Of a stretch of 64,000 nt of DNA, positions 50,210-51,523 are shown in pieces (positions within the stretch are counted from its first letter, which is position 1; each line of letters begins with the position of its first letter). The translations under genes were made by a program, and so were the position numbers. Location of the stretch: the IMG/VR virus record IMGVR_UViG_3300044712_002690, positions 1-64,000 of that record; one strand, 5' to 3'. Source of the stretch: a virus. The notes beneath the pieces are model-generated. The model ran no database searches. It was given only the letters and a program-made list of their open reading frames with translations, and was not told where the DNA came from.

Positions 50210-50545
50210 TTATCCTCTCGATTTTTCTTGCTTTCTTAGAACAAGTGAATTTGAATTTTGGTTATACATTTCACTAGAAACTTCTTTAGCAACACGAAGG
50301 ATAACATCTACTGAATTATCATGATTTAATAAGCACTTTTCAGCTATGAAAATTTCTGCTTGAGGATATTTCTCTTTGTAATAATGAGCTGCTGCAGTTT
50401 CAAATGGTCCGTCTGTAATAAGACCCTTCTTACCAATACCTTTAAAAGATGTTCTGACATATCTAAGAAGGTTGAGATCAGCTAAGTCTTCCATGCTAAA
50501 TCTAACTAAACCTTTCTTTGAATTTATTTGGCTAACTTCTGGCAT
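50210..50545 (-). CDS. First gene of the leftward block, small unknown protein
   Basis: I use the ATG at 50545 ('MPEVSQINSKKGLVRFSM', 111 residues) because GGAG lies ten bases upstream; a GTG three codons earlier is too close to that SD. The protein is alpha/beta with basic patches and 'GPFETAAAHYYKEKYPQAEI'. It stands next to the divergent regulatory region. Function unknown. Confidence 0.55.
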   Translation of the reverse strand: MPEVSQINSKKGLVRFSMEDLADLNLLRYVRTSFKGIGKKGLITDGPFETAAAHYYKEKYPQAEIFIAEKCLLNHDNSVDVILRVAKEVSSEMYNQNSNSLVLRKQEKSRG

Positions 50546-50587
50546 AATAATCACACTCCACTTGTGTGGGAATTAAATGAGTTCTAG

Positions 50588-50600
50588 TAAAAATTAGAAT
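50588..50600 (-). promoter_or_regulatory. Promoter-like motif for the leftward block
   Basis: The plus-strand sequence TAAAAATTAGAAT lies 43-55 bases upstream of the first leftward ATG (50545). It matches the recurring TAAAAAnnTAGAA element. Confidence 0.4.
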
Positions 50601-50663
50601 AACTAGGGAAAGATTTAGGCGAAAAAACACACACACTTAATATTATTTTAATAAATTGTTTCT

Positions 50664-50678
50664 GAGTGCGAAGCACTC
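50664..50678 (+). terminator. GAGTGC-GAA-GCACTC hairpin followed by TTTTATT
   Basis: A 6-bp stem closes a GAA triloop and is followed on the plus strand by TTTTATT, so it could end rightward transcripts. Its core GCGAAGC is the known extra-stable DNA mini-hairpin. Given its place next to AT-rich repeats, a role in replication or as a hairpin promoter is an alternative. Confidence 0.45.
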
Positions 50679-50712
50679 TTTTATTCTAGGAGAAGTGAGA
50701 ATTCCTCTTTAG

Positions 50713-50725
50713 TGAGCGAAGCTCA
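50713..50725. other. TGAGC-GAA-GCTCA hairpin
   Basis: This is a second hairpin with the same GCGAAGC core, 49 bases downstream of the first. It has a 5-bp stem plus a possible G-T pair and no T-run on either side, so it is not a terminator. Confidence 0.45.
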
Positions 50726-50732
50726 TACATTA

Positions 50733-50772
50733 GGTTATATATGGTTATATATTGTTATAATAAGTTATATAT
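50733..50772. repeat. Four tandem 10-bp AT-rich repeats
   Basis: The four units are GGTTATATAT, GGTTATATAT, TGTTATAATA and AGTTATATAT. They follow one another without gaps at exactly one helical turn. Such arrays next to iterons act as DNA unwinding elements in many origins. Confidence 0.75.
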
Positions 50773-50785
50773 AATTGATACCATG

Positions 50786-50917
50786 TCAAGTGGGTCACAT
50801 GAAGAGTTCAAGTGGGTCACATGGGGGTACTCAAGTGGGTCACATAGGACTTTCAAGTGGGTCACATAGCACTTTCTAAACGGGGATGAGCGTCAGACCC
50901 TATCAAGTGGGTCACAT
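50786..50917. repeat. Five identical 15-bp direct repeats TCAAGTGGGTCACAT
   Basis: Copies start at 50786, 50808, 50831, 50853 and 50903. All are identical over 15 bases. Start-to-start distances are 22, 23, 22 and 50 bases, so the first four repeat on the same face of the helix. The repeat is GC-rich compared with its surroundings. They look like protein-binding sites (iterons). Confidence 0.9.
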
Positions 50918-50933
50918 GTAAATTAAAGTAATT

Positions 50934-50964
50934 TTGCTAGATTTCTCTCAGAATTACATATAAT
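50934..50964 (+). promoter_or_regulatory. Possible promoter of the rightward block
   Basis: TATAAT at 50959-50964 is a perfect -10 box 25 bases upstream of the first rightward ATG. A weak TTGCTA (50934-50939) lies 19 bases upstream of it. The last iteron ends 16 bases before the presumed -35, so binding there could control this promoter. Confidence 0.4.
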
Positions 50965-50989
50965 ATTGTAATGAGTTAAAAATAAAACT

Positions 50990-51523
50990 ATGAAAGTACT
51001 ACAACCACAGTTTAAACAGTTTTGTATTGACAAAGTAGGACAAGAGTGTGCAGAAAAGATTTATTCTTTCTACAAATCTCTTAGTACTAAGCAGCAAGGA
51101 AAGACAGATAAATTTCTTAATCTCTCAGAAAGACGAGAAAGAAGTTTAACCTTTCTTTTAGAAAATTATGGAATAGACAATATTCTAGAAACGATTGACA
51201 TCTTTAATAAGAAAGCGGAATCTGGTGAGCTTACAGTTAATACTATTCCTTATTTTAATAAGATGGTTGAAAATCACTCAATACAAAAGAATAAAAAACC
51301 TGTTCCAAGAACGAATCCTATATTCTTTAAAACTATTACAACTACAATTATTCCAGTTAGAAAAAGAAGTTCAGAGATTAATACCTATGAGATTGATTTA
51401 TTTAATTGGGTATATGAATGTTCTCAGTGTAAAGCAGAATTTACAGGTTGGGATGAACATTGTCCAAAATGCAATTTAACTATAGATTGGGATCACTACA
51501 ATGATAAAAATTCTGAAAAGTAA
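50990..51523 (+). CDS. Zinc-ribbon protein next to the iteron array
   Basis: The 177-residue protein has a helical N-terminal domain, including 'NYGIDNILETIDIFNKKAES' and 'NTIPYFNKMVENHS', and a C-terminal zinc ribbon with C144-x2-C147 and C158-x2-C161. The helical section recalls the 'helix then Y-x-x-x-x-L/V-x-N' pattern of DnaD-like or replisome-loading proteins, but this is weak. As the first gene after the repeats it is the best candidate for the protein that binds them. No strong SD precedes the ATG. Confidence 0.55.
   Translation: MKVLQPQFKQFCIDKVGQECAEKIYSFYKSLSTKQQGKTDKFLNLSERRERSLTFLLENYGIDNILETIDIFNKKAESGELTVNTIPYFNKMVENHSIQKNKKPVPRTNPIFFKTITTTIIPVRKRSSEINTYEIDLFNWVYECSQCKAEFTGWDEHCPKCNLTIDWDHYNDKNSEK

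What the first reader, a model, noticed from the sequence alone, without database searches (positions are those of the whole stretch)
50733..50964. Iteron-type origin layout at the divergent junction
The sequence shows five identical 15-mers (TCAAGTGGGTCACAT) at 22, 23, 22 and 50-base intervals, directly beside four gapless 10-bp AT-rich repeats and followed by a zinc-ribbon gene. Iterons on one helix face plus an AT-rich unwinding element next to the gene of the binding protein is the established layout of iteron origins in plasmids and some phages. It would be unusual in a large myovirus. A second reading: the core AAGTGGGTCAC resembles, from memory, subterminal repeats of some IS21-family elements, and copy 1 is preceded by TG as at such ends. 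No transposase is nearby, so these might be captured sites reused by the phage.
Basis: partly seen in the sequence, partly recalled or inferred. Interest (0 to 1): 0.85.

Follow-up and report, generated by a model that had tools for sequence, protein, structure and literature searches.

The report
Iteron-type replication origin in large phage
The repeats look like the place where a large bacterial virus starts copying its DNA: a row of protein-binding sites beside one of the most easily melted stretches of the genome, at a spot where a distant relative keeps the same layout built from completely different repeat sequences.

Summary
Five identical TCAAGTGGGTCACAT copies (50786, 50808, 50831, 50853, 50903) are the only copies in the 178,984-bp phage record. 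They lie 13 bp from four 10-bp AT-rich repeats, among the least stable DNA of the genome, at the genome's single major divergence point. The best reading is an iteron origin of the lambda-O/plasmid type; this is inferred from sequence, not tested.

New support: the only near-complete relative found (236 kb, collinear) has, at the same junction in the same order and orientation, an 11-bp AT-rich repeat and an unrelated 4 x 22-bp array. That array abuts a gene weakly resembling O/DnaD initiators. The window phage has its own orphan initiator-like gene at 70.6-71.2 kb. Elsewhere in IMG/VR, four clusters of the core GTGGGTCAC lie inside O/DnaD-type initiator genes, with easily melted DNA beside them.

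Two first-reader details fail. The zinc-ribbon protein is probably not the repeat binder: it is conserved while the repeats are not. The IS21 resemblance is real (one IS21 end has five copies), but an IS remnant is unlikely: the TG is on the wrong side, no second end exists, and spacers are random around five unchanged 15-mers.

The parts
50733..50772 (.). AT-rich 10-bp x 4 array, candidate DNA unwinding element
   Evidence: TRF period 10, 4.0 copies; 40-bp window at 50735 is the second and 30-bp window at 50745 the first least-stable distinct site of the 179-kb genome
50786..50800 (+). iteron copy 1, TCAAGTGGGTCACAT
   Evidence: exact match
50808..50822 (+). iteron copy 2
   Evidence: exact match
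50831..50845 (+). iteron copy 3
   Evidence: exact match
50853..50867 (+). iteron copy 4
   Evidence: exact match
50903..50917 (+). iteron copy 5, 50 bp from copy 4
   Evidence: exact match
50868..50902 (.). 35-bp spacer AGCACTTTCTAAACGGGGATGAGCGTCAGACCCTA without a further copy; possibly a site for a second protein
   Evidence: sequence; no copy with up to 3 mismatches; the role is inference
50664..50678 (+). hairpin GAGTGCGAAGCACTC (C-GAA-G loop) followed by a T-rich tail; terminator or single-strand signal
   Evidence: the role is inference
50713..50725 (+). second hairpin TGAGCGAAGCTCA with the same GCGAAGC core
   Evidence: the role is inference
50990..51523 (+). zinc-ribbon protein, 177 aa, first gene of the rightward arm; not the likely iteron binder
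   Evidence: ORF; 45% identical homologue at the same place in the relative; helical N-terminal domain plus ribbon, low-confidence model without significant fold match
50210..50545 (-). first gene of the leftward (structural) arm
   Evidence: 69% identical homologue in the relative supports start at 50545

Best explanation
The intergenic stretch 50733-50917 is a replication origin of the iteron type. A phage-encoded winged-helix initiator (best candidate the orphan gene 70604-71170, minus strand, of the same genome) binds the five 15-bp direct repeats. It wraps or bends the DNA and melts the adjacent AT-rich 10-bp repeats. It then hands the opened site to the phage's own DnaC-like loader, DnaB-like helicase and DnaG-like primase, so that forks leave from the point where the two main transcription units diverge. 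Shown here: the repeats, their uniqueness, near-lowest duplex stability, selection on the 15-mer, the conserved layout with unrelated repeats in a relative, the presence of the replisome genes, and the same core inside initiator genes of other phages. Inferred: which protein binds, origin activity, direction of forks.
For: (1) Architecture: AT-rich 10-bp x 4 and 5 iterons, adjacent, intergenic. (2) The AT-rich block is the second least stable 40-bp site and the least stable 30-bp site of the genome. (3) The only near-complete relative found (G001/L096) is collinear in both arms and has at the same junction, in the same order and orientation, an 11-bp AT-rich repeat and a 4 x 22-bp array of unrelated sequence, with unstable DNA on the same side (top 0.16%). 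(4) The relative's array directly follows a 218-aa gene whose weak PHROGs matches include three replication families: replication initiation O-like, replication initiation, DnaD-like loader; it is the only phrog_9773 match in that genome. (5) The window phage has one initiator-like gene, 70604-71170 minus: DnaD-like loader phrog_186 E 6e-4, replication initiation and O-like families E 0.003-0.013; unique six-frame match to phrog_186, E 2.6e-5 for the genome, and to phrog_678. (6) It encodes DnaB-like helicase, DnaC-like loader, DnaG-like primase, a Pol I-type polymerase, processivity factor and SSB. (7) Independent phages with GTGGGTCAC pairs at 21-24 bp: four of 35 loci carry them inside initiator genes (phrog_11233 E 6e-35; phrog_270 E 1e-34 and 3e-25; O-like E 0.009 followed by a DnaB gene), with least-stable DNA immediately 5' in two of them, same polarity as here. 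(8) Spacers share 24-39% identity while all five 15-mers are identical, so the site itself is selected. (9) The circular GC-skew minimum is at 50561 and the maximum at 98.6 kb.
Against: No replication data, binding data or replication peak. The candidate initiator lies 20 kb away and its family matches are weak; a four-initiator HMM ranks it first of 266 proteins but with E 1.2. GC skew follows gene orientation and is therefore confounded. The relative's repeats contain an internal dyad that these lack. In G001 the AT-rich repeats are not the least stable site: a stretch at 149512, beside the zinc-ribbon gene, is less stable. The context count of 4 in 35 is small and no control scan with another 9-mer could be run. 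Only one relative has the junction.
Confidence: 0.72

Rival explanations
1. Operator array: the repeats bind a phage transcription factor that switches the two divergent arms, with no role in replication. The AT-rich block would be promoter or UP-element DNA.
For: The site lies between the two largest transcription units and just upstream of the first rightward gene. Tandem operators at 22 bp are common (general knowledge). Iterons in plasmids often double as operators, so both roles may hold.
Against: The promoter scan finds no more promoter-like sites than shuffles. In the relative the array is not next to the zinc-ribbon promoter, because a 218-aa gene lies between. A promoter role does not predict a tandem AT-rich array in both phages or the initiator-gene context of the same core elsewhere.
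Confidence: 0.17
2. Captured or remnant IS21-type end: five IstA binding sites left by an insertion, possibly re-used by the phage.
For: A real IS21 element in L142/G011 has five direct GTGGGTCA copies at 23-24 bp at one end and two inverted at the other, beside a transposase (phrog_1157, E 2e-81). L084, with IstB and IstA-like proteins, has two AAGTGGGTCA copies at 24 bp. IS21 repeats are 23 bp apart and usually at least two per end (PMC10122671).
Against: In L084 and L142 the element body lies 5' of GTGGGTCA, so the TG before copy 1 is on the wrong side. No inverted copy anywhere in the genome, no IstB Walker motif within 45-57 kb, no transposase among the neighbouring genes searched. Spacers are conserved in L142 but random here with five unchanged 15-mers, so the sites are under present selection. 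The relative has an unrelated array at the same place. L142 lacks a comparable melted neighbour.
Confidence: 0.07
3. Other nucleoprotein site: a phage partition or segregation centre, a packaging or termination site, or a recombination enhancer.
For: Phage centromeres and integrase arms also use repeats at about 22 bp; pairs of the core lie beside integrase-like genes in L115 and L143 (gene identity by eye only). A tubulin/FtsZ-like gene is present.
Against: No integrase or ParA-like gene was recognised among the genes searched around the junction; the terminase gene lies 44 kb away, at about 95-97 kb.
Confidence: 0.04

Closest known systems
Phage lambda ori and O protein (PMC5043065)
   Same: four or five iterons directly beside an AT-rich block of about 40 bp; winged-helix O-type initiator; DnaB-type helicase and a loader
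   Different: lambda iterons are near-perfect inverted repeats inside the O gene; here they are direct repeats in an intergenic region, the candidate initiator gene is 20 kb away, and helicase and loader are phage-encoded
Iteron plasmid origins (RK2, P1, R6K, pSC101; PMC5043065)
   Same: direct repeats of about 20-22 bp period next to an AT-rich unwinding element made of repeats
   Different: no DnaA box with at most 1 mismatch in the junction; no Rep family match beside the repeats; the genome is a large tailed phage
Phages with GTGGGTCAC clusters inside DnaD/O-like initiator genes (L117, L119, L120, L131; this work)
   Same: same 9-bp core at 21-24 bp, easily melted DNA immediately 5' in L117 and L131
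   Different: there the array is inside the initiator gene; the candidate protein here is only distantly similar
Vibrio phage ICP1 and satellite PLE (PMC7145576)
   Same: large phage with an early single bidirectional origin; satellite with repeated initiator sites in noncoding DNA
   Different: PLE uses a RepA_N initiator; in ICP1 the origin was located from read coverage in that paper
IS21-family ends (PMC10122671; L084, L142)
   Same: AAGTGGGTCA/GTGGGTCAC direct repeats at 22-24 bp, up to five copies
   Different: no transposase, no inverted partner end, opposite side for the terminal TG, random spacers

Membership tests
Iteron-type replication origin | several near-identical direct repeats of about 15-22 bp, periodic at about two helical turns | tested here: met
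   five exact 15-mers, spacings 22, 23, 22, 50
Iteron-type replication origin | adjacent AT-rich unwinding element | tested here: met
   10-bp x 4 array 13 bp away, among the two least stable sites of the genome
Iteron-type replication origin | cognate initiator encoded by the replicon | tested here: inconclusive
   one initiator-like gene in the genome, 70604-71170 minus, weak matches; binding not shown
Iteron-type replication origin | initiator binds the repeats and melts the AT-rich block | not testable with these tools
   needs protein and DNA
Iteron-type replication origin | replication starts at the site | not testable with these tools
   needs infection-time read depth or cloning
Lambda O-type origin | iterons inside the initiator gene, each an inverted repeat | tested here: not met
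   intergenic; unit has only a short GTG-GGT-CAC dyad
Plasmid iteron origin with DnaA boxes | DnaA boxes near the AT-rich block | tested here: not met
   no TTATMCACA match with at most 1 mismatch in 50555-50990
IS21-family insertion sequence | istA and istB genes | tested here: not met
   no IstB Walker motif in 45-57 kb; none among the neighbouring genes searched
IS21-family insertion sequence | a second end with inverted copies | tested here: not met
   no GTGGGTCA on the other strand anywhere in the genome
IS21-family insertion sequence | multiple direct terminal repeats at about 23 bp | tested here: met
   22-23 bp spacing, shared core with L084 and L142

The most novel reading that the evidence does not exclude
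In this group of large phages the origin is a fixed slot at the divergence point whose parts are swappable: initiator gene and iterons are replaced together by unrelated sets while the order (AT-rich repeats, 22-bp repeats, early arm) and the rest of the replisome stay. The initiator may even act from 20 kb away. That would be cassette-like turnover of origin specificity in large phages, perhaps driven by competition with co-infecting phages or satellites that use the same iterons.
Probability: 0.35. Interest if true: 0.75.

Novelty: new member of a known kind. Interest (0 to 1): 0.55.

Why it matters
Replication origins of most large environmental phages are unknown. If this is right, it gives a sequence-level rule (paired AT-rich and 22-bp arrays at the main divergence point) that can be looked for in other large phages. 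It also suggests that origin specificity, iterons plus initiator, is exchanged as a unit while the rest of the replisome is kept, and it makes a direct read-depth prediction.

Tried and rejected
Zinc-ribbon gene as iteron binder: the protein is 45% conserved while the repeats are unrelated; the fold search gave nothing significant. IS21 remnant: see rivals. Rfam: no match. Regional tRNA genes: none in the window. DNA similarity of the junction in phages and plasmids: only chance-level hits. Single-copy 15-mer hits in 19 viral contigs: one copy each, likely chance. AAGTGGGTCA pairs: mostly glycine-rich coding repeats. The fold of the relative's 218-aa protein failed (pLDDT 47). Direct homology between the two initiator-like proteins, and to the initiators of L117/L119/L120/L131, could not be shown. 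tblastn of both initiator-like proteins found no relatives in phages, nor the window phage's in plasmids. GC skew was examined but is confounded with gene orientation.

Full report
Observation. The five 15-mers, their spacings and the neighbouring 10-bp AT-rich array are exactly as described. They are unique in the record of 178,984 bp. No other 15-mer in the genome has three exact copies within 300 bp, apart from its own overlapping shift. A rough analytic estimate of the expected number of such clusters is 10^-20.

Setting. 51 ORFs run leftward from 50.5 kb to the start of the record, and two blocks of 24 and 30 ORFs run rightward from 50990 to 98.4 kb, interrupted by one reverse gene at 70604-71170. 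The junction is the only large divergence; the large convergence is at 98.4 kb. The leftward arm is structural (portal closest to Virus Rctr197k and Bacillus phage G; major head protein). The rightward arm holds SbcC/D-like proteins, dUTPase, SSB, Pol I-type polymerase, processivity factor, DnaC-like loader, DnaB-like helicase and DnaG-like primase, so the phage is expected to load its own helicase. The detrended GC-skew minimum lies at 50561 and the maximum at 98619, as for an origin and a terminus, but gene orientation explains it equally well.

Melting. With nearest-neighbour energies the AT-rich block is the least stable distinct 30-bp site and the second least stable 40-bp site of the genome.

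Relative. Scans with the portal protein found only two relatives, one of them a 10.9-kb fragment without the junction. In the 236-kb relative (L096/G001) both arms are collinear with ours, the zinc-ribbon protein is 45% identical and the first leftward gene 69%. At the same junction it carries 4 x 22 bp TAAACAAGGCAAACGCCTTGGT followed by 11-bp AT-rich repeats. Read in our orientation the order is the same in both: structural arm, AT-rich repeats, 22-bp repeats, zinc-ribbon arm. The repeat sequences are unrelated, and the 15-mer is absent from the relative (one hit with two mismatches elsewhere). Position, period and AT-rich neighbour are conserved while the binding sequence is not. That argues for a function at this place and against the conserved zinc-ribbon protein as the specific binder.

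Initiator candidates. The relative's array directly follows a 218-aa gene with weak matches to replication families: phrog_9773 O-like, phrog_8102 replication initiation, phrog_6493 DnaD-like loader, E 0.004-0.02, plus a stronger match to a family of unknown function. The genome-wide search with phrog_9773 finds only this gene. The window phage has no homologue of it but has the orphan gene 70604-71170 on the minus strand, alone against 54 rightward genes, with matches to phrog_186 DnaD-like loader (6e-4), phrog_270 and phrog_428 replication initiation and phrog_678 O-like. In the six-frame genome search phrog_186 and phrog_678 match only this gene, E 2.6e-5 and 0.0012. This is suggestive, not proof; the two candidate initiators are not detectably homologous.

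The same core elsewhere. A scan of IMG/VR for two GTGGGTCAC within 18-27 bp gave 35 loci. In four the pair lies inside a replication-initiator gene: L117 (phrog_11233 6e-35, phrog_678 1e-21), L119 (phrog_270 1e-34), L131 (phrog_270 3e-25) and L120 (O-like 0.009, next gene DnaB-like). Roughly 0.3-0.7 would be expected if about 1-2% of phage DNA encodes such genes (my estimate, not measured). In L117 and L131 the 40 bp just 5' of the iterons are within the least stable 0.07% of the locus, with the same polarity as in the window; L119 shows it more weakly 5' and L120 3'. A fifth locus, L058, has three copies in the start of the gene after a winged-helix-looking ORF (by eye only; no PHROGs match). 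phrog_270, phrog_428 and phrog_678, matched strongly by these initiators, are among the families weakly matched by 70604-71170.

IS21. The remembered resemblance is real. L084 encodes IstB (Pfam 4e-77) and an IstA-like protein, with two AAGTGGGTCA at 24 bp. L142/G011 has five GTGGGTCA at 23-24 bp at one end and two inverted at the other, next to a transposase. Published IS21 repeats are 23 bp apart (PMC10122671). Against an IS remnant here: in both elements the body lies 5' of GTGGGTCA, opposite to what the TG before copy 1 would need; there is no inverted copy in 179 kb and no IstB motif nearby; the spacers are random here (24-39% identity) although all 75 bases of the five sites are unchanged, whereas in L142 the spacers are conserved. 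Five unchanged sites in randomised spacers mean present selection on binding, whatever their origin.

Mechanism. Initiator binds the direct repeats, melts 50733-50772, and the phage loader places DnaB-like helicase; forks move out along both arms, co-directional with transcription. Shown: sequence elements, stability, conservation of layout, gene content. Inferred: binder, melting, fork direction. The fifth copy is set off by 35 bp, which may hold another protein. Two hairpins with the same GCGAAGC core (50664, 50713) flank the AT-rich block on its left; genome-wide only three such hairpins exist, 1.6 expected. They could be terminators or single-strand signals; nothing tests this here.

Known kinds. 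It works like lambda ori and plasmid iteron origins (PMC5043065) but misses defining details of each: the repeats are not inside the initiator gene and there are no DnaA boxes. Large phages can start bidirectional replication from one origin, as shown for ICP1 by read depth (PMC7145576). I file it as a new member of the iteron-origin kind, with confidence 0.72 that it is an origin.

Noticed in passing
G000 77543-83548 (L025:13543-19548), outside the window: QueD, QueE, QueC, two GTP cyclohydrolase-like proteins, a DUF366 protein and a TGT/queuine transferase-like protein in one run: a preQ0-type pathway, probably for 7-deazaguanine modification of phage DNA.
   Followed up: partly
G000 89942-91030 (L026:5942-7030), outside the window: Tubulin/FtsZ-like GTPase (Pfam PF00091, E 8e-12), as in phages that build an intracellular spindle.
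   Followed up: no
window 50664-50678 and 50713-50725: Two hairpins with the exceptionally stable GCGAAGC core, 49 bp apart; two of the only three C(GNA)G hairpins of the genome with stems of 5 bp or more.
   Followed up: partly
G000 94173-94916 (L026:10173-10916), outside the window: GIY-YIG-type homing endonuclease between a sigma-factor-like gene and the terminase gene.
   Followed up: no
L112 (G001 235881-236368) and L101 1-150: The relative's record starts and ends in 138-bp tandem repeats with a 119-bp exact terminal overlap, perhaps an assembly-resolved circular genome or terminal repeat.
   Followed up: no
L131 (43906-44030 in G010): An isolate-derived viral contig has GTGGGTCA in two runs at 12-bp period inside its initiator gene, unlike the 22-bp period elsewhere.
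   Followed up: no
L115 and L143: Pairs of GTGGGTCAC at 21-22 bp lie directly beside tyrosine-integrase-looking genes (by eye), possibly integrase arm sites.
   Followed up: no
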